Below, piece after piece: positions 40,521-60,994 of a DNA stretch of 64,000 bases. A program made the translations under genes and the position numbers. The DNA is from Hylemonella sp. (GTDB lineage Bacteria > Pseudomonadota > Gammaproteobacteria > Burkholderiales > Burkholderiaceae_C), in the NCBI GenBank assembly GCA_030680575.1, contig JAUXVI010000047.1, positions 1 through 64,000 on the forward strand, read 5' to 3'. Within the stretch, counting starts at the first letter, position 1. Each line of letters starts with the position of its first letter. Below the pieces are notes generated by a model that ran no database searches, was not told where the DNA came from, and saw only the letters and a program-made list of their open reading frames with translations.

Positions 40521-40991
40521 TTACATGAAGCGGTCGAGAATCTTGCGACTGTCGCGACTCAGCGTCGTCAGATCTCGGATCAGAAAATGAATGCCATGCG
40601 AATCGGTCACCAGCAAGGTGTTGCCGGCCAGCCGGCGGATGTCTTCGTCACCGCGCAGCACAAAACGTGTTTCACCGCGATCGGTCAGTACCTGCCAGGT
40701 ACAGGGTGTGGCAAAGCTGGTGACACTGAGAATGGCCTGGATCTCCGGCATGAACTCCCAGCCGCCGAGCGCCTCGCGAATCAGGCCTTGCGCCGGCTGC
40801 GGCACATCGGTCAGGGCATCGACCCAGGCCACCTCGTGTCCATCGCTGCTCATCAGCGAGATGCCGCGCTCGGGTGACTGGATGGGGAAGGCGCGCACAG
40901 GCATCACCCCCTCATGGGTCTGACCGTCCGGCGTGGTCAGCACCAGCTTGCCAAACGCATTACGCTGCAGTTCAAAGGGGCTGGCGTTCAT
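40521..40991 (-). CDS. DUF1854 protein coupled to the cyanophycin-associated ABC transporter
   Basis: The 156-residue soluble protein has the DUF1854 pattern: an N-terminal FELQRNAFGKLVLTTPDG, GVMPVRAFPIQSPERGISLMS, GHEVAWVDAL, RGDEDIRRL, and DSHGIHFLIRD near the end. It has no signal or membrane helix. Its ATG overlaps the stop of the ABC transporter gene (ATGA), so the two products probably work together. Proteins of this family are reported beside cyanophycin genes. Function is unknown; a cytoplasmic partner or regulator of the transporter is inference. Confidence 0.85.
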   Translation of the reverse strand: MNASPFELQRNAFGKLVLTTPDGQTHEGVMPVRAFPIQSPERGISLMSSDGHEVAWVDALTDVPQPAQGLIREALGGWEFMPEIQAILSVTSFATPCTWQVLTDRGETRFVLRGDEDIRRLAGNTLLVTDSHGIHFLIRDLTTLSRDSRKILDRFM

Positions 40992-43291
40992 TTGGCATCG
41001 TCCTTCTTGTCGCCGACGGCCGCTTCCACGGCGTCGTCCATGTCCACATCCATGTTGCGCGCCTGGGCCTGGTACAGACCATAGTAGGCGCCCTCTTTGG
41101 CCATCAGTTCATCGTGCGTGCCTTCTTCCACCACCTGGCCTCGGTCCAGCACCACCAGCCGGTCGGCGCGCTGCAGGGTGGAGAGACGGTGCGCGATGGC
41201 GATGGTGGTGCGGCCCTGCACCAGGTTTTCCAGCGCTTTCTGGATTTCCTTCTCGGTTTCGGAATCGACCGAGGCGGTGGCCTCGTCGAGAATCAGGATG
41301 CGCGGGTCGATCAGCAGGGCACGTGCGATCGAGATACGCTGACGCTCGCCGCCGGACAGGCCCTGGCCGCGCTCACCCACCATGGAGTCATAGCCCTGCG
41401 CCAGGCGCAGGATGAACTCGTGGGCATGGGCGGCACGCGCGGCGGCAATGATTTCCTCGCGCGTGGCATCGGGCCGGCCATAGGCAATGTTGTCGGCAAT
41501 GGTGCCAAAGAAGAGGAAGGGCTCCTGCAGCACCAGACCGATGTTGCGGCGGTATTCGGCCACCGGCAGGGAGCGGATGTCCACGCCATCGACGCGGATG
41601 CTGCCCTCCGACACATCGTAGAAGCGACAGATCAGGTTGACCAGTGTGCTCTTGCCCGAACCACTGTGACCAACCAGCCCGACCATCTGGCCGGGCTCGA
41701 TGGTCAGGTTGATGCCGCGGTTGACTTCGCGGTTGCCATAGCGGAAACCGACGTCACGCACCTCGATGCGACCTTCCACATGCGCCAAGTGCACTGGCTG
41801 CGTCGGCTCCGGCACACTGGAAACATGGTCGAGAATGTCAAAGATGCGCTTGGCAGCGGAAGCGGATTTTTCGGTCCACGACACGATGCGGCTCATGGAG
41901 TCGAGCCGGCCGTAGAAGCGGCTGATGTAGGCGATGAAGGCCGTCAGCACACCTACCGTGATCTGCTCGTGCGCCACCAGCCAGACGCCGAAGGCCCAGA
42001 CCACCAGCAGGCCGACTTCCGTCAGGAAGGACACACTGGGCGTAAACAGCGACCAGACGCGGTTGAGCTTGTCGTTGACCACCAAGTTGTGGCGGTTGGC
42101 ATCATGGAAACGCTTGGACTCGCGCTTTTCCTGGGCGAAGGCCTTGACCACGCGGATGCCGGGAATGGTGTCGGCCAGCACGCTGGTAACCTCGGACCAG
42201 ACGCGATCGATCTTCTCGAAACCGGTCTTGAGCCGATCGCGCACGGCGTGGATCATCCAGATGATGATGGGCAGCGGCAGCAAGGTCACCAAAGCCAGCC
42301 AGGGGTTGATGGAAAACAGGATGGCCGCCGTCATCGCCAGCATCAGTACGTCGGTGGCGAAGTCCAGCAGGTGCAGAGAGAGGAAGACACAGATGCGGTC
42401 GGTCTCGCTGCCGATGCGGGCCATCAGATCACCGGTCCGTTTGCCGCCGAAGTATTCGAGCGAAAGATGCAGCAGGTGGTCGTAGGTGGTGGTGCGCAGG
42501 TCGGCACCGATGCGCTCGGACACCAGCGCCAGGATATAGGTGCGCGCCCAGGTCAACACCCAGGCCAGCAAGGCCGAGCCGAACAGACCGCTCAGGTAAA
42601 GCGTCACCAGCATGGGGTCGATCTTCTGCCCGTTCTGGAACGGGATCAGCACATCGTCCATCAGTGGCATGGTCAGGTAGGGTGGCACCAGACTGGCGGC
42701 CGTTCCCAGCAAAGTGAGCACAAACCCCCAAAACAACTGAACCCGGTAGGGCCGGGCAAACCGCCAGAGCCGGAACAGGGTCCAGGTGGACGGTGGGGTA
42801 TGGATGACCTTGGTGCAAATCGGGCACTCATCCTGGTCCGGATCAAGCGGCGCCTTGCAGTTGGGGCAAAAAAGCCCCTGCGGCTGGACCACGGGCTTGC
42901 CGCTGAGATGGCCTTCCAATTGCAGACGGAACTGCTCATGGACCCGGATGGCCTGCAAGTTCTGGCCCAGCGTGAAACACCAGCTGGCCAGCCGGCCGGA
43001 AGGGTCCACCAGGTCCAGATGCCCCACGCCCGCATGGTCATGGTGATGCAAGGCCAAACCGGACCGATAATCCCATGTCTGCCAGCCGGCGTCCCCGTGG
43101 GAGCGACTGAGCAGGCGACGGTCGGTCACGGCCAGCAGCCCGCGGACAAAACGAAGTTGGGTGTCGAGGTCAACCTCCAGCACGGCCAGAACGTTTTCTT
43201 CAGGCTGAAGCAGTGAACGTGCCTCCTGACGCCAATCAGCCGGGATTTCGTTGATTGATAATTCGCTTGCGGCTGGAGAGTGGTTTGTCAT
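40988..43291 (-). CDS. ABC transporter (fused permease-ATPase) with N-terminal accessory domain and zinc ribbon, cyanophycin-associated
   Basis: The 767-residue half-transporter has an unusual front end. Residues about 25-125 form a beta-rich domain resembling bacterial PH/GRAM-like folds (VLAVLEVDLDTQLRFVRG, LLAVTDRRLL). It is followed by a zinc ribbon with Cys142, 145, 156 and 159 (FCPNCKAPLD and ECPIC). The exporter-type six-helix domain spans about 180-480. The ATPase has Walker A GHSGSGKST, Q-loop LVLQEPFLFF, signature LSGGERQR and Walker B ILILDEATAS, all intact. It is coupled to the DUF1854 gene and divergent from two cyanophycin synthetase genes 200 bp away. Related proteins carry the family name cyanophycin metabolism-associated ABC transporter. 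What it moves is not known. Confidence 0.88.
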   Translation of the reverse strand: MTNHSPAASELSINEIPADWRQEARSLLQPEENVLAVLEVDLDTQLRFVRGLLAVTDRRLLSRSHGDAGWQTWDYRSGLALHHHDHAGVGHLDLVDPSGRLASWCFTLGQNLQAIRVHEQFRLQLEGHLSGKPVVQPQGLFCPNCKAPLDPDQDECPICTKVIHTPPSTWTLFRLWRFARPYRVQLFWGFVLTLLGTAASLVPPYLTMPLMDDVLIPFQNGQKIDPMLVTLYLSGLFGSALLAWVLTWARTYILALVSERIGADLRTTTYDHLLHLSLEYFGGKRTGDLMARIGSETDRICVFLSLHLLDFATDVLMLAMTAAILFSINPWLALVTLLPLPIIIWMIHAVRDRLKTGFEKIDRVWSEVTSVLADTIPGIRVVKAFAQEKRESKRFHDANRHNLVVNDKLNRVWSLFTPSVSFLTEVGLLVVWAFGVWLVAHEQITVGVLTAFIAYISRFYGRLDSMSRIVSWTEKSASAAKRIFDILDHVSSVPEPTQPVHLAHVEGRIEVRDVGFRYGNREVNRGINLTIEPGQMVGLVGHSGSGKSTLVNLICRFYDVSEGSIRVDGVDIRSLPVAEYRRNIGLVLQEPFLFFGTIADNIAYGRPDATREEIIAAARAAHAHEFILRLAQGYDSMVGERGQGLSGGERQRISIARALLIDPRILILDEATASVDSETEKEIQKALENLVQGRTTIAIAHRLSTLQRADRLVVLDRGQVVEEGTHDELMAKEGAYYGLYQAQARNMDVDMDDAVEAAVGDKKDDAK

Positions 43292-43491: not shown

Positions 43492-45657
43492 ATGACAACG
43501 AAAAATATTCAATTCCTGCGGGTCACCCATCTGCGTGGCCCCAACATCTGGACCTACCGTCCGGTGATCGAAGCCTGGGTCGATATCGGCGAACTGGAAC
43601 ACCACCCTTCCAACACCATCCCCGGATTCTACGAGCGTTTGACCGCCATGCTGCCCTCTTTGGCAGAACACCGCTGTGGCGTCGGGGAGCCAGGCGGCTT
43701 CCTGCTGCGCCTGCGCGAAGGCACCTGGGCCGCACACATTCTTGAGCACGTGGTGTTGGAGTTGCAGAACCTGGCCGGCATGCAGACTGGTTTTGGCAAG
43801 GCGCGCATGACCTCGGCCCACGGCATCTACAAGCTGGCTTTCCGCACCCGCCATGAAGACGTGGGGCGCGCTGCCCTGGAAGCCGGCCGCGATCTGGTCA
43901 TGGCCGCCATCGAGGACCGGCCTTATGACGTAGCGAGCGCCGTGGCCCAATTGCGCGAACTGGTTGACAGGGTCTGCCTGGGTCCGAGCACGGCCAACAT
44001 CGTCGATGCCGCCAGCGAACGTCGTATTCCGCACATCCGGCTGACCAACGGCAATCTGGTCCAACTGGGCTACGGTGCACGCCAGCACCGCATCTGGACC
44101 GCCGAAACCGACCAGACCAGCGCCATTGCCGAGAGCATTGCCAGCGACAAGCACATGACCAAGGGCCTGCTGCAGTCCTGTGGCGTGCCGGTGCCTGAAG
44201 GCCAGGAAGTCGACAGTGCCGAGGCCGCCTGGGAAGCCGCGCAGGACATCGGCTTGCCCGTGGTGGTCAAACCGACCGATGCCAACCATGGCCGCGGCGT
44301 CTTCACCGACCTCAACACCCGTGCGGAAATTGAAAAAGCCTACGTGGCCGCCGATGCCGAAGGCAGCGGCGTGCTGGTGGAAAAATTCATCCGTGGCGAT
44401 GCCCATCGCCTGCTGGTGGTCGGCAAACGCGTGGTCGCCGCCACCCGCGGCAAGATGCAGACCGTCACCGGCGATGGCCGCGCCACGGTGCGCCAGCTGA
44501 TCGAGAGCCAGATCAACAGCGACCCGCGCTGCGGCGTCGAGGAAGAGTTCCCGCTCGAACCGCTGATTCTGGACAAGGAGCCGATTGCCCAACTCGAGCT
44601 GGAGCGCCAGGGCCTGACCGGCGAATCGGTTCCCGAAGCCGGCCGAACCATTCTGGTCAAGCGCCAGGGCGATCTGGCCTACGACGTCACCGATCAGGTA
44701 CACCCCCAGGTGGCCTCGGCTGCCGCACTGGCCGCTCGCGTGATTGGACTGGACATCGCCGGCATTGACTTGGTGGCCGAAGACATCGGCCGCCCACTCC
44801 ATGAACAGGGCGGTGCCATCATCGAAGTCAATGCCGGCCCGGGTCTGCTCATGCACATCAAACCGGCCGAAGGCCAGCCACGCCCGGTGGGCCAGGCCAT
44901 CGTCGATCACCTGTTCCCGGGTGACGCACAGGGCCGCATCCCGATCGTCGGCATCACCGGTACCCAGCACACCACGCGCATTGCGCGGCTGGTGGCCTGG
45001 CTGCTGCACATCAATGGCACACAAGTCGGCCTGGCCTGCCAGGACGGTTTTTTCCTCGGCGCACGTCAGGTCGATGGCGTCAACAGCGTCAACTGGGAAG
45101 CCGGTCAGCGCCTGCTGATCAACCGCTCGATCGAAGCCGCCGTGCTGGAACACAGCACCCGAGCCATCCTCTCCGAAGGTCTGGCCTATGACCGCTGTAC
45201 CGTGGGCGTGATCACCGACATCGGCAACCTGGAAGAGCTGGCCGACTTCTACATCGACGATGCTGACCGTCTTTACAACGTCGTGCGCACACAGGTCGAC
45301 GTCGTGTTGCCGCATGGCACTGCCGTGCTCAATGCCGCCAATCCGCAGGTGGTGGAAATGGCCTCGCTGTGCGATGGCAAGGTCATCTTCTATGGCCTCG
45401 ATCCGGAACTCGAAGCGATTGCTTCGCACCGCGCCAGCGGTGAACGCGCCGTCTTCCTGCGCGAACGACAGATCATCCTGGCCCAGGGCATGGACGAAGT
45501 GAGCCAGATCCCGCTGGCGTCGCTGAACCCGACCAAAGCTGAAAAGCCCGAAATGGTCATGGCCGCTGTGGCGGCCGCCTGGGCCCTGGGCATCACGCCT
45601 GAGCTGATTGGCGCTGGCCTGCGTACCTTCAACCCGACTCCCAAGAAAAACTTCTGA
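43492..45657 (+). CDS. Cyanophycin synthetase paralogue with degenerate Mur-ligase P-loop (CphA2/CphA'-like)
   Basis: The 721-residue protein has the CphA N-terminal domain (1-160), an ATP-grasp domain (about 200-450, with VVKPTDANHGRGV and EVNAGPGLLMHIKPA) and a shortened Mur-ligase-like domain. In the last, the ATP-binding P-loop reads GITGTQHTT (487-495), with Gln-His where CphA has Asn-Gly-Lys, so that site should not bind ATP. The C terminus stops about 140 residues short of full CphA. ATP-grasp remains intact, so it may still join Asp or dipeptide units. Known truncated CphA2 enzymes use beta-Asp-Arg dipeptides. ATG at 43492. It precedes the full cphA by 4 bp. Confidence 0.87.
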   Translation: MTTKNIQFLRVTHLRGPNIWTYRPVIEAWVDIGELEHHPSNTIPGFYERLTAMLPSLAEHRCGVGEPGGFLLRLREGTWAAHILEHVVLELQNLAGMQTGFGKARMTSAHGIYKLAFRTRHEDVGRAALEAGRDLVMAAIEDRPYDVASAVAQLRELVDRVCLGPSTANIVDAASERRIPHIRLTNGNLVQLGYGARQHRIWTAETDQTSAIAESIASDKHMTKGLLQSCGVPVPEGQEVDSAEAAWEAAQDIGLPVVVKPTDANHGRGVFTDLNTRAEIEKAYVAADAEGSGVLVEKFIRGDAHRLLVVGKRVVAATRGKMQTVTGDGRATVRQLIESQINSDPRCGVEEEFPLEPLILDKEPIAQLELERQGLTGESVPEAGRTILVKRQGDLAYDVTDQVHPQVASAAALAARVIGLDIAGIDLVAEDIGRPLHEQGGAIIEVNAGPGLLMHIKPAEGQPRPVGQAIVDHLFPGDAQGRIPIVGITGTQHTTRIARLVAWLLHINGTQVGLACQDGFFLGARQVDGVNSVNWEAGQRLLINRSIEAAVLEHSTRAILSEGLAYDRCTVGVITDIGNLEELADFYIDDADRLYNVVRTQVDVVLPHGTAVLNAANPQVVEMASLCDGKVIFYGLDPELEAIASHRASGERAVFLRERQIILAQGMDEVSQIPLASLNPTKAEKPEMVMAAVAAAWALGITPELIGAGLRTFNPTPKKNF

Positions 45658-45661
45658 ACCT

Positions 45662-48244
45662 ATGGACGTTTCCCGCATCCGCGCCCTGCGCGGGCCCAAT
45701 CTGTGGAGTCATCACACAGCCATCGAAGCGGTTGTGACCTGCACCACGGCTGAATGCGCCATCAGCACACGCAACGGTTTCGAAGCCCGGCTGCGCGCCC
45801 GCTTCCCCCAGATCCGTGCGCTGCGCCCCAGCGGTCACGACGACACCGTGCCCATGGCCCATGTGCTGGAACTGGTGGCACTCGACCTGCAGGCCCAGGC
45901 GGGCTGTCCAGTCACCTTCAGCCGCACCACTGCAACCCCCGAGGCCGGCGTCTATCAGGTGGTGGTCGAGTACTCCGAGGAAGAAGTCGGCCGCCTCGCC
46001 TTGACGCTGGCCGAAGCCCTGTGTTTTTCAGCCCAGAACGACACACCGTTCGACCTGGAGCAGGCACTCGACCAGTTGCGGGAACTCGATGAGGACGTAC
46101 GGCTGGGGCCGAGTACCGGTTCGATTGCCACCGCCGCTGCCGCACGCCAGATCCCCTACCGCCGCATGACGCAAGGCAGCATGATCCAGTTCGGCTGGGG
46201 AGCTAAGCAGCGCCGCATCCAGGCCGCAGAGATGGACGTCACCAGCGCGATTGCCGAATCCATCGCGCAGGACAAGCAGTTGACCAAAAAACTACTGGCC
46301 GCTGCCGGCGTGCCGGTGCCGCTCGGTTTCGAGGTCGCCTCGCCCGAAGAAGCCTGGAAAGCCGCGCTTGAGATCGGCCTGCCGGTCGTGATCAAGCCCA
46401 AAAACGGCAACCAGGGCAAGGGCGTGACGGTCAACATCACTTCGCGTGAGCAGCTCATGGCGGCCTATGCCGCAGCCGCCGAATTTGACGACGAGATCCT
46501 GGTCGAACGCTTCATGCCCGGTAACGACTTCCGCCTGTTGGTGGTGGGTGACAAGCTGGTGGCCGCGGCACGCCGCGACCCGCCCAGCGTGGTGGGTGAC
46601 GGCCTGCACAGCGTGCGCGAGCTGGTGGACGAGGTCAACAAGGACCCGCGCCGCGGCTCCGGCCACGCCACTTCGTTGACCAAGATCCGCTTTGACGATA
46701 TCGCCCTGTCCTGCCTGACCGCTCAGGGCCTGAACGCCGACTCGGTTCCCCCCAAGGGCAAGCGCGTCTCGCTGCGCCACAACGCCAACCTTTCCACCGG
46801 CGGCTCCGCCACCGACGTCACCGACGATGTGCATCCCGAGGTGGCGCAACGCGCCGTCGCGGCCGCCCAGATGGTGGGGCTGGAGATCTGTGGCGTGGAC
46901 GTGGTGTGCGACAGCGTCCATCACCCGCTTGAAGACCAGGGGGGTGGCGTGGTCGAGGTCAATGCCGCACCGGGCCTGCGCATGCATATCTCGCCGTCCT
47001 ACGGCAAAGGCCGTCCGGTGGGTGAGGCCATCATCTCGGCCATGTTCCCCGAAGGTGAGAACGGTCGCATCCCCTTGGTGGCGGTGACCGGCACCAACGG
47101 CAAGACCACCACCGTACGCCTGATCGCCCATCTGCTGGCCCAGAAAGGCCTGTGTGTGGGCATGACCAGCACCGACGGCGTCTATGTGGGTGGCGAGCGG
47201 ATTGATACCGGCGATTGCAGCGGCCCCAAGAGCGCACGCAATGTGCTGCAGCACCCCGACGTCGATGCCGCGGTGCTGGAGACGGCGCGCGGCGGCATGC
47301 TGCGCGAAGGTCTGGCTTTCGATCGCTGCGATGTGGCCGTCGTCACCAATGTCGGCAGCGGCGACCACCTGGGACTGAACTACATCACCACGGTCGAGGA
47401 CCTGGCGGTGCTCAAGCGCGTGATCGTGCAGAACATCGCCGACAAGGGCATGGCTGTGCTCAACGCCACCGACCCGATTGTGGCTGGCATGGCGGCCCAT
47501 TGCCGCGGTGCCGTCACCTTCTTCGCCATGGACCGCAACCATGCCGTGATGGCCACGCATCTGGCCCAGGGGCGCCGGGCAATCTATGTCGAAGACGGCC
47601 AGTTGGTCGCCGCCGAAGGCACGGTGCAGCACAAGATCGCGCTGGCCGATGTGCCGCTCACTCTGCAGGGCACCATTGGCTTCCAGGTTGAAAACGTGAT
47701 GGCCGCCGTCGGCGCCGCCTGGGGTCTGGGACTGGACTGGGCTCTGGTGCGCCAGGGGCTGGCCAGCTTCGTCAACGACAGTGACAACGCACAAGGCCGC
47801 TTCAACCTGTTCCACTACCGCGGCGCCACGGTGATTGCCGATTACGGCCACAACCCGGATGCCATGCTGGCCTTGGTGCGCGCGGTGGAAGCGATGCCGG
47901 CCAAGCGCCGCTCGGTCGTCATCAGCGGCGCCGGCGACCGGCGCGATGAGGACATCCGCGAGCAGACCCGCATCCTAGGCAACGCTTTCGATGAGGTGGT
48001 GCTGTACCAGGATGCCTGCCAGCGTGGCCGCGCCGATGGCGAGGTGCTGGCCCTGCTGCGCGAGGGCCTGCAAGGTGCCCAACGCACACGCGACATGCAC
48101 GAAGTCCACGGCGAGTTCCTCGCGATTGATCTGGCCATGGACAAGCTGTGCGAGGGTGACCTGTGCCTGATCCTGGTCGATCAGGTGGAAGAGGCCCTGG
48201 CCCACATCACCGCACGCATTGAGCAAGAAAAGACCTCGAACTAG
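45662..48244 (+). CDS. cphA: Cyanophycin synthetase, full length
   Basis: The 860-residue enzyme polymerises aspartate and arginine into the nitrogen store cyanophycin. The N domain (1-160) is followed by the ATP-grasp domain, which adds Asp (LPVVIKPKNGNQGKGVTV, EVNAAPGLRMHISPS), and the Mur-ligase-like domain, which adds Arg. The latter has an intact P-loop, VTGTNGKTTTVR (Lys481), and DYGHNPDAM near the C terminus. Length is normal for CphA. It starts 4 bp after the truncated paralogue, so the two are one transcription unit. No cyanophycinase gene is in the window. Confidence 0.95.
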   Translation: MDVSRIRALRGPNLWSHHTAIEAVVTCTTAECAISTRNGFEARLRARFPQIRALRPSGHDDTVPMAHVLELVALDLQAQAGCPVTFSRTTATPEAGVYQVVVEYSEEEVGRLALTLAEALCFSAQNDTPFDLEQALDQLRELDEDVRLGPSTGSIATAAAARQIPYRRMTQGSMIQFGWGAKQRRIQAAEMDVTSAIAESIAQDKQLTKKLLAAAGVPVPLGFEVASPEEAWKAALEIGLPVVIKPKNGNQGKGVTVNITSREQLMAAYAAAAEFDDEILVERFMPGNDFRLLVVGDKLVAAARRDPPSVVGDGLHSVRELVDEVNKDPRRGSGHATSLTKIRFDDIALSCLTAQGLNADSVPPKGKRVSLRHNANLSTGGSATDVTDDVHPEVAQRAVAAAQMVGLEICGVDVVCDSVHHPLEDQGGGVVEVNAAPGLRMHISPSYGKGRPVGEAIISAMFPEGENGRIPLVAVTGTNGKTTTVRLIAHLLAQKGLCVGMTSTDGVYVGGERIDTGDCSGPKSARNVLQHPDVDAAVLETARGGMLREGLAFDRCDVAVVTNVGSGDHLGLNYITTVEDLAVLKRVIVQNIADKGMAVLNATDPIVAGMAAHCRGAVTFFAMDRNHAVMATHLAQGRRAIYVEDGQLVAAEGTVQHKIALADVPLTLQGTIGFQVENVMAAVGAAWGLGLDWALVRQGLASFVNDSDNAQGRFNLFHYRGATVIADYGHNPDAMLALVRAVEAMPAKRRSVVISGAGDRRDEDIREQTRILGNAFDEVVLYQDACQRGRADGEVLALLREGLQGAQRTRDMHEVHGEFLAIDLAMDKLCEGDLCLILVDQVEEALAHITARIEQEKTSN

Positions 48245-55570: not shown

Positions 55571-56403
55571 GTGATGTGCTGAATCCACCGCAGGACAAAC
55601 CTGCCTCCCCGCAGCAGCCAGGCAAACCGCAAGGCAAGGTGCTGGCCGTGACCAGCGGCAAAGGCGGCGTGGGCAAGACCTTTGTCTCGGCCAACCTCGC
55701 TGCCGCACTGGCCAAGCGCGGTCACCGCGTGCTGGTGATCGACGCCGACCTCGGCCTGGCCAATCTTGACGTGGTGCTGAACCTTTATTCCAAGGTCACG
55801 CTGCATGACGTGTTCACCGGCAAGGCCAAACTGGAAGAGGCCATCATCAAGGCCCCAGGTGGTTTTTCCGTGCTGCTGGCCGGCTCCGGCATGGTCGAGT
55901 ACTCGCGCCTGACGGCCGAAGTGCGCGACGATTTCCTGCATGTGATCGAGACGCTGGCCTCCAAGTTCGACGTGCTGCTGCTCGACACCGGCGCCGGGAT
56001 TTCCGATATGGTGCTGTTCGCCGTCTCCCAGGCGGCCGAAGTGCTGCTGGTGGCCACCCCTGAGCCGACCTCGCTGACCGACGCCTACGCCACCATCAAG
56101 GTGCTGGTGGGCCAGCAAAAACGCCAGAACATCCGCATGATCATCAACCAGACGGCCCGTCTGGGCGACGGCCGTGCCATCACGGTGCAGTTGCAGCAGG
56201 TGCTGGACCGTTTCGTCACCGCCGAGCCGGGTCGTCCGGTGCGCCTGATCCACATGGGCGACATCCCGGAAGATCCCACGGTGCGTCAGGCCATCATGCG
56301 ACGCCAGTTGCTGATGCAGAACACGCCGGGCTGCCCAGCGGGCATGGCGATTTCCCAGCTGGCCCTGAAGATCGAAGAAACGATCCTGAACAAAGACGCC
56401 TGA
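55567..56403 (+). CDS. MinD/FlhG-like P-loop ATPase
   Basis: The 278-residue protein has a deviant Walker A (TSGKGGVGKTFVSANLAAA), DADLGLANLDVVLN, and LLDTGAGISDMVLF, all typical of MinD/FlhG ATPases that set cell-pole or flagellar placement. The first 25 residues are Pro/Gln-rich and lack the DQAxxLR motif of classical FlhG. No C-terminal amphipathic helix as in MinD is clear. No flagellar or min genes are nearby. Coupling to a GGDEF gene suggests a link between cyclic di-GMP and motility or polarity, which is inference. Confidence 0.85.
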   Translation: MSDVLNPPQDKPASPQQPGKPQGKVLAVTSGKGGVGKTFVSANLAAALAKRGHRVLVIDADLGLANLDVVLNLYSKVTLHDVFTGKAKLEEAIIKAPGGFSVLLAGSGMVEYSRLTAEVRDDFLHVIETLASKFDVLLLDTGAGISDMVLFAVSQAAEVLLVATPEPTSLTDAYATIKVLVGQQKRQNIRMIINQTARLGDGRAITVQLQQVLDRFVTAEPGRPVRLIHMGDIPEDPTVRQAIMRRQLLMQNTPGCPAGMAISQLALKIEETILNKDA

Positions 56404-56408
56404 ACGGC

Positions 56409-57245
56409 TCAGGCCGTGACGATCCAGCCTTCGAGCGGGTCCACCGTGGCCGGCAAGCCGTAATGCGGCGCGCCCTGCTGCCAGGCCCAAGCGGCCTGCA
56501 TCAGGCACAGCACGGCATCGAGCGCATCCCCCCGACCATCATCCACCAACGCGTCGCGCTGCGCGTGCGTGAGCTTCAGGCGCAAGCCCAGGCGCGTCTG
56601 GCCATGCTCCAGCGCTGTGAGCAAATCCTTGCGCGCGATCAGGCGCTCCGGTGTCTGTCGCGCCCGCTCATCACTCTTGTAGCTGCGCGCACCCAGCACT
56701 TCACGCGCCAGCAAACCGGGGTAGCCTTCCAAGGCCACACGCGTCCGCTCACCCGCATGCAGGCCCGGCAGATGCACCCCCGCCGCCAGCAGGCGGGGCA
56801 CACCGGCATGCAGCATGAAAGCCACCGGCGGATTGACCCACTTCATCGACGGGCTGGAGCCGGCCGGGACATCGGTGGCACGGTGGGCGAACTTGCCACC
56901 CACCGGCCGGGCCGCGCAGAAGGCGGCAAAACGTGCACGAATGTCGTCCCGGCTCAAGCTGGCGTAGTGACGGATGCAAGCTTCCCAGTCCAAGGGCCAG
57001 CTCAAGGCTTGCACCAGTTCACGCGGCAATCCGAAAGGGAAGTCGAACGCACCCAGCCAGTCACCGGGCTGACTCAGCCAGTCGGCAAAGGCATCGAGGG
57101 AAGTCAAGCGCTCCAGTTTTGATAGCTGGACACGCCCGTTCTGCAAGGCCCCAAAGGCCAAAACAATCGGTTTTTGCCGGGTCGGACTGCTGGAAAAGTC
57201 GCAACCCAGCAGCAGGGACAGGCCACCAGCTGCCGACGCAGTCAC
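56409..57245 (-). CDS. DUF429 family protein
   Basis: The 278-residue protein has the DUF429 pattern: an N-terminal GCDFSSSPTRQKPIVLA, GAFDFPFGLPRELV, and a later EGYPGLLAREVLG with DGRGDALDAVLCLMQAA near the C terminus. Acidic residues at these points resemble an RNase H-like nuclease core. Function is unproven. The start is GTG at 57245, 16 bp after the BLUF gene. A half copy of the 17-nt repeat family (GATAGC) lies at 57121-57126 within it. Confidence 0.8.
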   Translation of the reverse strand: MTASAAGGLSLLLGCDFSSSPTRQKPIVLAFGALQNGRVQLSKLERLTSLDAFADWLSQPGDWLGAFDFPFGLPRELVQALSWPLDWEACIRHYASLSRDDIRARFAAFCAARPVGGKFAHRATDVPAGSSPSMKWVNPPVAFMLHAGVPRLLAAGVHLPGLHAGERTRVALEGYPGLLAREVLGARSYKSDERARQTPERLIARKDLLTALEHGQTRLGLRLKLTHAQRDALVDDGRGDALDAVLCLMQAAWAWQQGAPHYGLPATVDPLEGWIVTA

Positions 57246-57261
57246 GGTGAAGCCGGCCGCT

Positions 57262-57684
57262 TCAGGAGCGGCCGATGATGGAGGCGGTGGCCATCAGCTC
57301 TTCCAGCAATGCCAGCGAGACACGACCCGACACCGCATAGGGATCGAGTTCGGGTTTCTCGGAGTACTTGAGCAGGATGGAGGTGTTGATGCGCGACAGG
57401 TTGACCTGGCCCATGGTCCAGCCGCCGAAACGGCGCTCGCTGATTTCCTCGTAGTGCAGCAGCACCACGTCCTTGTGACGGGCATCGCGCTGGATGTGGC
57501 CGTAGAGCTCGCTCACGGCGTTGCGACCGCCCTCAATGGCCTGCAGGAAGATGCCGCCGCCGTAGCACAGGATGCCTGTGATACCGCAGGTCGGATTGAA
57601 CTGGCGCGACTGCGTCAGGATGGTCTCGATGGCGTCGGGACTCGCGTCGACGACACGGCTGGCGTAAAGCAGGCGGACCAACAT
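57262..57684 (-). CDS. BLUF-domain blue-light sensor
   Basis: The 140-residue protein is a stand-alone BLUF flavin photoreceptor (1-95) with a helical tail of about 45 residues. The residues needed for the light reaction are all present: Tyr7 (VRLLYASR), Asn30 (RQFNPTCGITG), Gln48 (FLQAIEG), and Trp89 with Met91 (GGWTMG). It has no fused output domain, so it probably acts by binding a partner. It lies downstream of folE in the same direction, after a repeat-like stretch, and upstream of the DUF429 gene. The partner is unknown. Confidence 0.92.
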   Translation of the reverse strand: MLVRLLYASRVVDASPDAIETILTQSRQFNPTCGITGILCYGGGIFLQAIEGGRNAVSELYGHIQRDARHKDVVLLHYEEISERRFGGWTMGQVNLSRINTSILLKYSEKPELDPYAVSGRVSLALLEELMATASIIGRS

Positions 57685-57690
57685 GGTCAG

Positions 57691-57768
57691 GCCTCCCGCC
57701 GGGCCGCCCCAAGGGAGACCTGCGCCCCCTGGGGGGCCAGTGAACGAAGTGAGCGTCGGGGGGATGTC
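57691..57768 (-). repeat. GC-rich repeat-like stretch between folE and the BLUF gene
   Basis: It has CCGCCGGGCCGCCCCAAGGG, then CGCCCCCTGGGGGGC and a GTGAACGAAGTGAGC segment. This is related in style to the other GC-rich intergenic elements here but is not a close match, and may belong to a second family. Confidence 0.5.
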
Positions 57769-57771
57769 ATA

Positions 57772-58497
57772 TCAGCTCCTCATGGGAATCAGGGACAGAA
57801 ATTCGCGGCGCAGGGTCGGGTCTTTCAGGAACACGCCGCGCATGACCGAGTTGATCATTTTGCTGTCCATGTCCTTCACGCCGCGCCAAGCCATGCAGTA
57901 GTGGCTGGCTTCCATGACGATGGCCAGGCCGTCGGGCTGGGTTTTCTGCTGGATCAGGTCGGCCAGTTGCACCACCGCCTCTTCCTGGATCTGCGGGCGG
58001 CCCATGATCCATTCGGCCAGACGCGCGTACTTGGACAGGCCGATCACGTTGGTGTGTTCGTTGGGCATGACGCCGATCCAGATCTTGCCGATCACCGGGC
58101 AGAAGTGGTGCGAGCAAGCGCTGCGCACAGTAATGGGGCCGACGATCATCAGCTCATTCAGGTGCTCGGCATTGGGAAATTCGGTGATGGTGGGACCCGG
58201 CACATAACGGCCGCGAAACACCTCATTCACGTACATCTTGGCCACACGACGCGCGGTCTTGTCGGTGTTGTGGTCGCGATCGGTGTCGATCACCAGGCTG
58301 TCGAGCACGGCCTGCATCTTGATCTCGACCTCGTCGAGCAGCTTCTCCAGCTCGCCGGGTTCGATGAACTCGGCAATGTTGTCGTTGGCATTGAAGCGCT
58401 TGCGCGCTGCCAGCAGGCGCTCCCGGATCTTGACGGAGACGGGCGTTCCCTCTTCGGTATCGTTTGGGTTCATGACGCTCTGGCTTTTCTTCAACAT
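57772..58497 (-). CDS. folE: GTP cyclohydrolase I
   Basis: The 241-residue enzyme converts GTP to dihydroneopterin triphosphate, first step of folate synthesis. Motifs: DKTARRVAKMYVNEVF, the zinc-site SACSHHFCPVIGKIWIGV, GLSKYARLAEW, and QPDGLAIVMEASHYCMAWRG. The next enzyme of the route, NudB, is encoded a few genes upstream. ATG at 58497; an internal ATG nine codons in is possible. Confidence 0.96.
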   Translation of the reverse strand: MLKKSQSVMNPNDTEEGTPVSVKIRERLLAARKRFNANDNIAEFIEPGELEKLLDEVEIKMQAVLDSLVIDTDRDHNTDKTARRVAKMYVNEVFRGRYVPGPTITEFPNAEHLNELMIVGPITVRSACSHHFCPVIGKIWIGVMPNEHTNVIGLSKYARLAEWIMGRPQIQEEAVVQLADLIQQKTQPDGLAIVMEASHYCMAWRGVKDMDSKMINSVMRGVFLKDPTLRREFLSLIPMRS

Positions 58498-58566
58498 GCT
58501 GCAATGTTACCAGCGATTGATGTTTGTGGTTATTAGCCACCAGGCCTTATGAAATATGCGTCAACA

Positions 58567-58583
58567 GCTATCAATTCAGTAGC
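58567..58583. repeat. 17-nt dispersed palindromic repeat spanning the clsB stop codon
   Basis: GCTATCAATTCAGTAGC resembles the elements at 26158-26174 and 31231-31247. Its right half supplies the last codons and the TGA stop (58576-58578) of clsB. Confidence 0.6.
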
Positions 58584-59811
58584 GCTTGCCATTCAGGAAG
58601 ATCATGGCACGCGTCAGGCCAAAGGCGATGCGGTCGAGCAGACGCTGCTGCCAGGGCCGGTTGGCATAGCTGGCCGGATCCACGCGTCGGCCGTCATGCT
58701 CCATGGCCTGCACCAGCCGCGTGCGCAACTCCTGGGCAAACCGCTCATCCACCACCACCACGTTGGCCTCGCGTGCCAGCAGCAGGCTCAGAGGGTCGAG
58801 ATTGGAGGAGCCAACTGTCGCCCAGCGCCGGTCGATCACCGCCACCTTGGCGTGCAGGAAGCTCGGCTCATACTCATGAATCTCCACCCCCGCCCTGAGC
58901 AACACGCCATACACCACCCGCACGGCGTGGTATTGCAGGAAATACTCGTAACGCCCCTGCAGCAGCAAACGCACCCGCACCCCGCGCTGTGCGGCGTGAA
59001 TGAGCGCCTGACGCAACTTGCGTCCGGGCAGGAAATAGGCATTGGCGATGATGATTTCCTCATGCGCTTCGCCAATGGCCTTGCGGTAGGCGCGCTCGAT
59101 GCGGCTGCGATGCCGCAGGTTGTCGCGCAGCAGCAAGGTGGCACGGGAGTGGCCATTGACCGCCAGCGTGCTGGCAAGACCGCCGCTGTCATCACGCGTC
59201 TGCAGCGCCAGTCGCACGGCCTGCTCGAGGTCATGCCAACTGGCGGCCAGATCGATGTTCTTCACGTCACGGACCGCTTGCAAGCGCCACCAGAACTGCG
59301 CCGTGACCTCATGGACCGAGCGCACCAGCGGGCCGGTCACGCGCACCGCGAAATCAAATCGAGGTGCGGGCAGGCGAGCATCATGATGGTCGCACCCATC
59401 GTCCAGCACGTTGATGCCGCCACAGAACGCCACCCGACCGTCGATCACGCACAGCTTGCGGTGCAGACGGCGCCAGCGGCTCGGAATGAACAAACCCAGC
59501 CGGCCCAAAGGCTGAAAAATCCGCCACTGCACGCCAGCTTCGTCAAAACGCGTCGCCCAAGCATCCGGCACGGAGGGCGTGCCCACGCCATCCATCACCA
59601 GATAGACGGCTACACCGCGTTGTGCGGCCCGCACCAGCGCCTCGGCCACCTGCTCGCCGGAGGGGTCGAAATGAAAAATATAGGTTTCCAGCCGGACCTC
59701 GTGCACGCTGTGCTCGATGTCGCGGACCAATTGGGGGAAGAAGGCCACCCCACCCTGCAGCAATTGCACCTGGTGCGCGGCGCGAAGCGGTGGCAGTTGC
59801 TTGTCCTTCAT
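58576..59811 (-). CDS. clsB: Cardiolipin synthase ClsB
   Basis: The 411-residue phospholipase-D-type enzyme makes cardiolipin. It has two HKD motifs, HRKLCVIDGRVAFCGG and HAKVAVIDRRWATVGSSNLD, and the typical ETYIFHFD segment. There is no clear membrane helix, as in E. coli ClsB (YbhO). ATG at 59811 overlaps the stop of the EEP-phosphatase gene (ATGA). In E. coli the neighbours ybhP-clsB have the same order. The stop codon lies inside a dispersed repeat, so the C terminus (NGKRY) has been set by it. Confidence 0.93.
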   Translation of the reverse strand: MKDKQLPPLRAAHQVQLLQGGVAFFPQLVRDIEHSVHEVRLETYIFHFDPSGEQVAEALVRAAQRGVAVYLVMDGVGTPSVPDAWATRFDEAGVQWRIFQPLGRLGLFIPSRWRRLHRKLCVIDGRVAFCGGINVLDDGCDHHDARLPAPRFDFAVRVTGPLVRSVHEVTAQFWWRLQAVRDVKNIDLAASWHDLEQAVRLALQTRDDSGGLASTLAVNGHSRATLLLRDNLRHRSRIERAYRKAIGEAHEEIIIANAYFLPGRKLRQALIHAAQRGVRVRLLLQGRYEYFLQYHAVRVVYGVLLRAGVEIHEYEPSFLHAKVAVIDRRWATVGSSNLDPLSLLLAREANVVVVDERFAQELRTRLVQAMEHDGRRVDPASYANRPWQQRLLDRIAFGLTRAMIFLNGKRY

Positions 59812-60542
59812 GCCGGCATGCCGAATTCCGCGATCAGCGGCAGGTGGTCGGACATGCGCCACCAGGCCCGTCCGCGCGGCACATCGACTCGCAGCGGCTG
59901 CAAACCACGGGTGTACACGTAGTCAAGCTGCACCAGCGGCAGGCGCGCCGGAAACGTCGGGTTCGCCCCGGGCTCGAAGGTTTTCAGTCCCATGCTCGCG
60001 AAGTGGCGATGCACGCGCTCGCCCCAGTCGTTGAAATCTCCCGCCACGACCAGGGGCGTCCCGGCCGGCACCTCGCGCTCGATGAATCGCTCCAGCTGTG
60101 CTGCCTGGCGCACGCGACTGGCACGGATCAGACCCAGATGCACCACCAACACATGGACGGGCTGCCCGTTGACCACGACCTCACTGTGCAGCAGGCCACG
60201 CTGCTCAAAGCGGTGGTCCGACATGTCTTCATGCTGATGCCCCAGCACCGGCCAGCGCGTCAGCATGGCATTGCCATGCTCGCCATGGCGTGTGTAGGCG
60301 TTCGTGCGGTAGACCGCTTCGTACCCCTCAGGCGCCAGGTAATCGGCCTGCGGCAGTTCGGGCCAGCGCGTGAAATACTGCGCCTCGCGCCGGTTCATCT
60401 TGCGCACTTCCTGCAGGCAGATGATGTCGGCATCAAGCTGCTCCACCGCCAGCCCCAGGTTGTGAATCTCCAGCCGGCGTTGCGGGCCCAGGCCCTGCAC
60501 GCCCTTGTGGATGTTGTAGGTGGCAACGCGCAAGGTTTTCAT
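59808..60542 (-). CDS. Endonuclease/exonuclease/phosphatase family protein (YbhP-like)
   Basis: The 244-residue protein has the EEP fold: RVATYNIHKGVQGLG, DIICLQEVRKMN, GNAMLTRWPV, LVVAGDFNDWGERV and the C-terminal WWRMSDHLPLIAEF. These give the catalytic Asn, Glu, Asp and His. The family member next to ClsB in E. coli is YbhP, of unproven substrate. Its ATG overlaps the nudB stop (ATGA) and its stop overlaps the clsB ATG. Confidence 0.88.
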   Translation of the reverse strand: MKTLRVATYNIHKGVQGLGPQRRLEIHNLGLAVEQLDADIICLQEVRKMNRREAQYFTRWPELPQADYLAPEGYEAVYRTNAYTRHGEHGNAMLTRWPVLGHQHEDMSDHRFEQRGLLHSEVVVNGQPVHVLVVHLGLIRASRVRQAAQLERFIEREVPAGTPLVVAGDFNDWGERVHRHFASMGLKTFEPGANPTFPARLPLVQLDYVYTRGLQPLRVDVPRGRAWWRMSDHLPLIAEFGMPA

Positions 60543-60994
60543 AAGGCGAATTTTGGCAGCATCAGGCAGGCTTCGGCATTGCTGGGCGAGTAGCAGCCCT
60601 CAGCCGCCTCGCGCCAGGGCAACCAGCGCCAAGCCGTGTGCTCGCGCGGATCAAGTCGCACCTTGGTTCCGGCCGGCACCTGCAGGCCGAACAAATGCTC
60701 GGTGTTGCGCGTCACGCCCGGCGCATAACGATGGCGCCAGCGCGGGTAGATGTCGTAGATGTTTTCCAGTCCCCAGTCGCGCAGCTGGTGGCCGGCAGCC
60801 CGGGCGTCAATACCGGTCTCCTCGGCCACCTCGCGTATGGCCGTGTCGGCAAAGCTCTCGCCCACATGGTCCTTGGCGCCGGTGACCGATTGCCAGAAAT
60901 CCTCGGCGTCGGCGCGCTTGATCAACAACACCTCCAGCGCCGGGGTGTGGATGACCACCAGCACGGATTGGGGGATCTTGTAGGGTTGGCGCAT
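60539..60994 (-). CDS. nudB: Dihydroneopterin triphosphate diphosphatase (Nudix)
   Basis: The 151-residue enzyme removes pyrophosphate from dihydroneopterin triphosphate in folate synthesis. The Nudix box is GAKDHVGESFADTAIREVAEETG. ATG at 60994 starts MRQPYKIPQSVLVVIHTP; an in-frame upstream ATG at 61036 would translate a terminator hairpin and is unlikely. It heads a coupled nudB-EEP-clsB run. Confidence 0.92.
   Translation of the reverse strand: MRQPYKIPQSVLVVIHTPALEVLLIKRADAEDFWQSVTGAKDHVGESFADTAIREVAEETGIDARAAGHQLRDWGLENIYDIYPRWRHRYAPGVTRNTEHLFGLQVPAGTKVRLDPREHTAWRWLPWREAAEGCYSPSNAEACLMLPKFAL

What the first reader, a model, noticed from the sequence alone, without database searches (positions are those of the whole stretch)
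43492..45657. CphA paralogue with a destroyed Mur-ligase P-loop, 4 bp upstream of intact CphA
Residues 487-495 read GITGTQHTT where the downstream CphA has VTGTNGKTT; the essential Lys is His. The C terminus is also about 140 residues short. The ATP-grasp half looks intact. This suggests a one-site enzyme that may join ready-made dipeptides, or a non-catalytic partner or primer-maker for CphA.
Basis: partly seen in the sequence, partly recalled or inferred. Interest (0 to 1): 0.55.

Follow-up and report, generated by a model that had tools for sequence, protein, structure and literature searches.

The report
Primer-making partner of cyanophycin synthetase
Next to the enzyme that builds the nitrogen-storage polymer cyanophycin sits a broken-looking copy that seems to have kept only the polymer-cutting site that makes starter pieces, so that many betaproteobacteria appear to have split one three-job enzyme into two proteins.

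Summary
The gene at 43492-45657 is CphA', upstream half of a conserved cphA'-cphA pair. The destroyed Mur-ligase P-loop is real. The sharper finding is complementary loss of the three active sites of CphA1. In 123 non-redundant CphA' all eight N-domain metallopeptidase residues (Cx19HxxEH and surroundings) are invariant (123/123), the aspartate-binding residues of the ATP-grasp domain are gone (R323G 121/123, S396 loop deleted 123/123, R458L 121/123), and the Mur site survives in 6/123. In 122 downstream CphAs the N site is lost in all; aspartate residues are kept 122/122 and the Mur lysine 121/122. Of 19 unpaired CphA1s, 17 keep the N motif plus both synthetic sites. One CphA' (L177) has also lost its ATP-grasp residues yet keeps all eight N-site residues. 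Best explanation: CphA' cuts primers in trans for a primer-dependent CphA, a natural counterpart of the published engineered N-G+M+/N+G-M- heterodimer. Joining ready-made dipeptides is disfavoured: solved CphA2 chains keep R323, N394, S396, CphA2 lacks the N motif, and the window genome shows no cyanophycinase. No biochemistry yet.

The parts
43492..45657 (+). cphA' (721 aa), upstream paralogue
43492..43980 (+). N domain of CphA' (residues 1-163), complete peptidase-like site
   Evidence: PF18921 126.9 bits; 8 of 8 site residues
43675..43749 (+). Cx19HxxEH motif: C62, H82, E85, H86 (SuCphA1 C59, H79, E82, H83)
43981..44934 (+). ATP-grasp G domain of CphA' (residues 164-481): ATP residues kept, aspartate site lost
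44284..44298 (+). G-domain P-loop NHGRG (His266 = SuCphA1 H267)
44449..44451 (+). Gly320 in place of aspartate-binding R323
44674..44679 (+). point (Leu395-Ala396) where the five-residue loop piece with S396 is missing
44848..44850 (+). Leu453 in place of aspartate-binding R458
44935..45654 (+). Mur-ligase core remnant, no lid
44959..44976 (+). destroyed Mur P-loop GTQHTT
45662..48244 (+). cphA (860 aa): N site lost, G site with Gln267, Mur site intact
40988..43291 (-). cyanophycin metabolism-associated ABC transporter (NF052233), divergent neighbour
   Evidence: present in 53 of 53 named loci with full flanks
40521..40991 (-). cyanophycin metabolism-associated DUF1854 protein (NF052234)

Best explanation
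CphA' is a dedicated primer-making subunit. Its N domain is an HxxEH zinc-peptidase-like endo-cyanophycinase that cuts newly made cyanophycin into short starters. These are elongated by CphA, whose own N site is destroyed but which keeps the Asp-adding G site and the Arg-adding M site. One ancestral duplication split the three sites of CphA1: CphA = N-G+M+; CphA' = N+ without an aspartate-adding site, and in most lineages also without a Mur site. Shown here: the site pattern, its conservation, the pairing and the tree. Inferred from published SuCphA1 biochemistry: cutting activity and priming role. Guessed: that the two proteins form a mixed oligomer and that the leftover ATP-grasp and Mur-core domains serve polymer binding and assembly.
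For: (1) Eight N-site residues invariant in 123/123 non-redundant CphA'; site intact in 0/122 CphA. The eight fall among 23 invariant of 153 columns (P about 8e-8, ignoring relatedness). (2) The M site is lost in 117/123 CphA' (5 parsimony changes; 14 losses if never regained) and H267 in 6/123; the N site in none of 123. In L177 the ATP-grasp site is dead too (K220R, H267A, D431A, E450D) with the N site complete. (3) 17 of 19 unpaired CphA1 keep Cx19HxxEH, H267, the aspartate residues and the Mur residues (16 keep all eight N residues; one has Leu67); the two exceptions are extra copies in a genome that also has a normal pair. (4) All 61 genomes with CphA' had CphA; all 50 genomes with this type of CphA had CphA' (both counted by hand). 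(5) CphA' and CphA are each one clade, 100/100 and 99/90. (6) Published: the isolated SuCphA1 N domain, or SuCphA1 dead in G and M, makes primer-dependent TmCphA1 primer-independent in trans; an N-G+M+/N+G-M- heterodimer works. (7) dN/dS below 0.25. (8) Predicted fold matches the SuCphA1 E82Q-cyanophycin complex 7txv, Z 42.8, rmsd 3.4, 703 residues.
Against: No activity, metal or complex was measured. K220, K261, R309 and D431 of CphA' are also invariant (123/123 each), so its ATP-grasp domain probably still does something this model does not explain. CphA has Gln for catalytic His267 in 120/122; H267A inactivates SuCphA1, Gln is untested. The E82Q change lowered SuCphA1 yield in E. coli only 2.3-fold and TmCphA1 without an N site still makes polymer; in the engineered heterodimer the split arrangement was somewhat worse without primer. 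A review says the Ralstonia eutropha H16 genes gave no detectable cyanophycin in their own host or in E. coli. 18 of 61 paired genomes have a cyanophycinase match over the cut-off (counted by hand), so another primer source is not generally missing.
Confidence: 0.72

Rival explanations
1. CphA' is a CphA2-like one-site enzyme that joins ready-made beta-Asp-Arg dipeptides through its ATP-grasp domain.
For: Mur P-loop and lid lost as in CphA2; ATP residues K220, K261, R309, D431 invariant; residue 458 is hydrophobic in both (Leu here, Phe/Tyr in CphA2); the window CphA' matches CphA2 7ta5 at Z 28.8 over 571 residues.
Against: CphA2 chains 7ta5 and 8fxh keep R323, N394 and S396 and have Lys at 267, while CphA' has Gly323, a deleted loop and His267. 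CphA2 lacks the N motif (legend), which is invariant here. No cyanophycinase or S51 peptidase found in the window genome to supply dipeptides. In L177 the ATP-grasp residues are gone.
Confidence: 0.1
2. CphA' is a structural or regulatory partner of CphA: it binds ATP and polymer and steadies a mixed oligomer, and its N site is only a polymer-binding patch.
For: ATP residues invariant and Mur core kept under selection after losing its catalytic residues; strict pairing; the N domain of CphA1 also binds cyanophycin loosely.
Against: Exactly the metal ligands and general base (H79, H83, C59, E82) are fixed in 123/123; binding alone would not need E82. Residue E90, which contacts the polymer in SuCphA1, is Asn in 54 of 60 CphA'.
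Confidence: 0.13
3. CphA' is a decaying duplicate without a lasting role.
For: Repeated loss of Mur site and lid; NCBIfam equivalog TIGR02068 not passed.
Against: Clade-wide retention, dN/dS below 0.25 in each domain, invariant N site, pairing kept in both genome samples.
Confidence: 0.03

Closest known systems
CphA1 (SuCphA1, TeCphA1: three-site cyanophycin synthetase)
   Same: Same fold from N domain to Mur core (Z 46.3 to 7wae, 705 residues; Z 42.8 to 7txv, 703 residues); N-domain peptidase motif complete.
   Different: Aspartate-binding residues of the G site, Mur-site residues and the lid are lost; it stands beside a second CphA with the opposite losses.
Engineered SuCphA1 heterodimer N-G+M+/N+G-M- (PMC9262961, part 3 read)
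   Same: Same division of sites between two protomers.
   Different: Man-made by point mutation; here natural, fixed in a clade, with loop deletion and domain loss.
CphA2 (Gloeothece 7ta5, Stanieria 8fxh)
   Same: Mur P-loop and lid lost.
   Different: CphA2 keeps R323, N394, S396 and lacks the N motif; CphA' is the reverse.
CphA' of Cupriavidus (C. necator UYPR2.512, L273)
   Same: Same clade, same N site and aspartate-site loss, cphA just downstream.
   Different: 882 aa with intact Mur residues (GTNGKT, DH); the window's CphA' has lost Mur site and lid.
TmCphA1 (primer-dependent, none of the four N-motif residues)
   Same: Like the window's CphA: N-G+M+.
   Different: No CphA' partner is mentioned in the parts of the paper read.

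Membership tests
CphA1 cyanophycin synthetase (Asp and Arg polymerase) | aspartate-binding G site (R323, N394/S396 loop, R458) | tested here: not met
   R323G, loop piece with S396 deleted, R458L
CphA1 cyanophycin synthetase (Asp and Arg polymerase) | Mur P-loop Lys, D585/H586, lid | tested here: not met
   GTQHTT; Glu-Glu at 585/586; no Mur_ligase_C
CphA1 cyanophycin synthetase (Asp and Arg polymerase) | equivalog model TIGR02068, cut-off 850 bits | tested here: not met
   709.8 bits; the broader subfamily model NF010623 is passed, 1034.4 over 877
CphA1 N-domain primer-making peptidase | Cx19HxxEH with H57, F67, R70, E87 | tested here: met
   8 of 8 residues; invariant in 123/123 CphA'
CphA1 N-domain primer-making peptidase | metal binding and cyanophycin cleavage | not testable with these tools
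   needs protein
CphA2 dipeptide polymerase | Mur P-loop and lid absent | tested here: met
CphA2 dipeptide polymerase | N-domain motif absent (as the paper states) | tested here: not met
   motif complete
CphA2 dipeptide polymerase | G site as in solved CphA2 (R323 and S396 kept, Lys at 267) | tested here: not met
   7ta5 and 8fxh
CphA2 dipeptide polymerase | ATP-dependent joining of beta-Asp-Arg | not testable with these tools
   needs protein
CphA' clade (upstream paralogue of paired betaproteobacterial CphA) | groups with the Cupriavidus upstream copy and lies just upstream of cphA | tested here: met
   G-domain tree 100/100; cphA 4 bases downstream

The most novel reading that the evidence does not exclude
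CphA' is not only the primer-maker but also the missing polymer-mobilising enzyme of many betaproteobacteria: a free endo-cyanophycinase, perhaps ATP-gated through its retained ATP-grasp domain, that both starts synthesis and begins breakdown of the reserve in genomes without a recognisable cyanophycinase. 43 of 61 paired genomes, the window's included, have no TIGR02069 match over its cut-off (counted by hand; a few of the 43 have weaker matches).
Probability: 0.12. Interest if true: 0.78.

Novelty: new variant of a known kind. Interest (0 to 1): 0.62.

Why it matters
If right, many genes named 'cyanophycin synthetase' (CphA' passes the NF010623 cut-off) are not synthetases but primer-cutting subunits, and betaproteobacterial cyanophycin systems of this kind are two-protein systems that should be expressed together. 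That may bear on why the Ralstonia eutropha genes gave no detectable cyanophycin, and gives a natural test of why synthesis and cutting are joined in CphA1. It is also a clear case of a three-site enzyme divided by duplication, with intermediates alive: Cupriavidus and Bordetella copies that keep the Mur residues, and L177 with only the N site left.

Tried and rejected
Rejected: pseudogene (dN/dS below 0.25 in each domain against five relatives, some dS values high). Rejected: gene conversion of the Mur domain from CphA in the full-length CphA' copies; their Mur cores group with CphA' and are 49-58% identical to the window's CphA' (8 rows) against 41-50% to their own CphA (7 rows). Not resolved: whether L198 (genome G602, 8% contamination), a single protein with N, aspartate and Mur residues plus Gln267, is a pre-duplication form; it falls in one clade with CphA' and CphA, its order against them is open, and its frame runs into the contig end, so a following gene cannot be excluded. 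Position W672 varies in CphA', CphA and unpaired CphA1 alike and told nothing about oligomers. tblastn of CphA' against plasmids gave 109 records, all under 60% identity. The second structure job and one paper search were not used.

Rows left out of counts: one search dropped 17 short matches (aligned span under 450): the split CphA frames of L045 and one piece of L129, truncated CphA' frames of L180, L181, L189 (later refetched as L213-L215), ten Mur-like neighbours of unpaired CphA1, and L177's CphA' (examined alone). One search dropped two cut CphA pieces (L237, L285). In some searches three CphA' rows lack the N region because the locus was cut. G083 holds a CphA fragment that was not fetched or classified. 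N394 of CphA' cannot be placed because the loop beside it is deleted. The support of the tree behind the loss counts was not printed.

Literature: the searches showed no description of this division of sites; the library holds only openly licensed papers. Adames 2013 is not held and is known to me from recall and from one review passage.

Full report
What is there. Window 43492-45657 (+) encodes 721 aa and 45662-48244 (+) encodes 860 aa, four bases further on. Upstream and divergent lie genes matching NF052233 (cyanophycin metabolism-associated ABC transporter, 40988-43291) and NF052234 (DUF1854 protein, 40521-40991). The window lies in a 58-contig genome that holds a second, diverged pair on contig C26 (56% identity between the two CphA'; 68% between the two CphA). 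Its CphA' is 94-95% identical to proteins of two Curvibacter MAGs.

The reported P-loop. CphA' reads GTQHTT where CphA reads GTNGKTT. Without gaps the Lys position (SuCphA1 K499) is Thr494 and the Gly before it is His493. Pfam Mur_ligase_M and Mur_ligase_C match CphA only.

Three sites, two proteins. Published work gives the residues of each CphA1 site: N-domain endo-cyanophycinase H57, C59, F67, R70, H79, E82, H83, E87 (PMC9262961; parts 1-3 of 7 read); G-domain ATP and acyl-phosphate K220, K261, H267, R309, D431, E450 and aspartate R323, N394, S396, R458; Mur K499, T500, E558 (PMC9427784; sections 7, 8, 10 and 11 read); D585/H586 from PMC9262961. CphA', CphA and unpaired CphA1 of sampled genomes were aligned to SuCphA1, whose numbering was checked at 26 residues. 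After removing rows 85% or more identical: CphA' n=123: each of the eight N-site residues 123/123; K220, K261, R309, D431 123/123; E450 122/123; H267 117/123 (5 Arg, 1 Asp); R323 to Gly 121 and Ser 2; S396 deleted 123; R458 to Leu 121; K499 kept in 17. CphA n=122: R70 deleted in 122 and C59 kept in none; H267 to Gln in 120; R323, S396, R458 122/122; K499 121 (one row cut). Unpaired CphA1 n=19: 17 keep Cx19HxxEH, H267, aspartate and Mur residues (16 of them all eight N residues; one has Leu67); the two others are extra copies (L172) in genome G338, which also has a normal pair.

Which site matters. Within CphA' the Mur core is least conserved (mean pairwise identity 0.490, against N 0.631 and G 0.659); in CphA the order is N 0.594, Mur core 0.696, G 0.721. 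A full set of Mur residues remains in 6 of 123 CphA', 817-882 aa long. On a G-domain tree the Mur state needs 5 changes, or 14 losses if it cannot be regained. The Mur cores of those copies group with CphA', so this is retention, not conversion from CphA. Cupriavidus necator UYPR2.512 (L273) and Bordetella sp. LUAb4 (L301) are of this full-length kind. In L177, from another family of the class, the ATP-grasp site is also gone (K220R, H267A, D431A, E450D) but all eight N residues stay. In the 123 rows, H267 is replaced in 6, each with the N site complete. Among the sequences seen, the N site outlives both synthetic sites.

History. The G-domain tree (72 rows) gives CphA' 100/100, CphA 99/90, and the two together with the single L198 protein 100/99; the order of the three is open. 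This fits one duplication. L198 carries N, aspartate and Mur residues plus Gln267, but its frame runs off its contig. The ABC transporter and DUF1854 genes flank 53 of 53 named loci with full flanks, and also L177 and L212 (the L198 region); they were seen in none of 18 loci of unpaired CphA1, whose flanks are short.

Pairing. 61 of 100 family genomes had CphA' and all 61 had CphA. In the order sample all 50 genomes with this type of CphA had CphA', and the one further CphA' (G313) lies near a contig end. Both were counted by hand. Of 87 further loci, 83 hold both genes, about -4 to 302 bases apart; in the other four the contig ends within about 510 bases of the CphA' frame. The 80 named loci are the best 80 of 573 relatives, so they are not an even sample.

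Mechanism. In PMC9262961 the isolated N domain of SuCphA1, or SuCphA1 dead in G and M, made primer-dependent TmCphA1 primer-independent in trans. The N-G+M+/N+G-M- heterodimer was as active as the all-in-one form with primer and somewhat less so without. The natural pair has that arrangement. CphA' therefore most likely cuts nascent cyanophycin into primers for CphA. Shown: residues, pairing, tree, constraint. Inferred: cleavage, priming, physical partnership. Unexplained: the conserved ATP residues of CphA' and Gln267 of CphA.

The dipeptide idea. The two solved CphA2 chains keep R323, N394 and S396, have Lys at 267 and Phe/Tyr at 458; the paper says CphA2 lacks the N motif. CphA' has Gly323, a deleted loop, His267 and Leu458; only the hydrophobic 458 is alike. 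The window genome (93% complete) has no TIGR02069 and no S51 peptidase match; 18 of 61 paired genomes do pass the TIGR02069 cut-off (counted by hand). A paper on Sideroxydans (passages seen) calls an adjacent pair CphA1 and CphA2; that label may be wrong, but those sequences were not checked.

Structure. AlphaFold2 on 50 CphA' sequences gave pLDDT 90.3 and pTM 0.86. Best solved matches are CphA1 chains: 7wae Z 46.3, rmsd 3.4, 705 aligned; 7txv Z 42.8, rmsd 3.4, 703 aligned; CphA2 7ta5 Z 28.8, rmsd 3.6, 571 aligned; Foldseek ranks CphA1 above CphA2 as well.

Against the reading. There is no biochemistry. Loss of the N site in SuCphA1 lowers the E. coli yield 2.3-fold, and TmCphA1 without an N site still makes polymer. 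A review reports that the R. eutropha genes gave no detectable cyanophycin (passage seen). Confidence is 0.72 for the primer-making role and lower for a physical complex.

Noticed in passing
L008 (genome G000, contig C26:52000-62228; CphA' about 58797-60914, CphA about 56162-58735): The window's genome carries a second cphA'-cphA pair, 56% and 68% identical to the window's, with the same division of sites.
   Followed up: yes
L097, L168, L170, L171, L175, L176, L203-L206: Beside ten unpaired CphA1 genes lies a second frame (420-720 aa) matching only the Mur-ligase domain, perhaps a different kind of cyanophycin partner.
   Followed up: no
L172 (genome G338): Two further CphA-type genes on opposite strands with degenerate N sites and Gln267, in a genome that also has a normal pair.
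   Followed up: partly
L208-L211, L220: Frames of about 640-775 aa with a CphA-like ATP-grasp domain and, by eye, no Mur P-loop; a stretch of L210 matches both CphA1 and CphA2 chains.
   Followed up: partly
L045 (G003), L129 (G294): CphA is split between two frames, by frameshift or sequencing error, while CphA' is whole.
   Followed up: no
window:43492-45657: NCBIfam NF010623 names CphA' 'cyanophycin synthetase' above its cut-off although aspartate and Mur residues are lost; TIGR02068 is not passed.
   Followed up: yes
L285: A cphA' of betaproteobacterial type on a contig binned as Akkermansia muciniphila, probably a binning error.
   Followed up: no
window:45662-48244: CphA has Gln at the G-domain P-loop His267 position (NQGKG), as do 120 of 122 paired CphA, although H267A inactivates SuCphA1.
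   Followed up: partly
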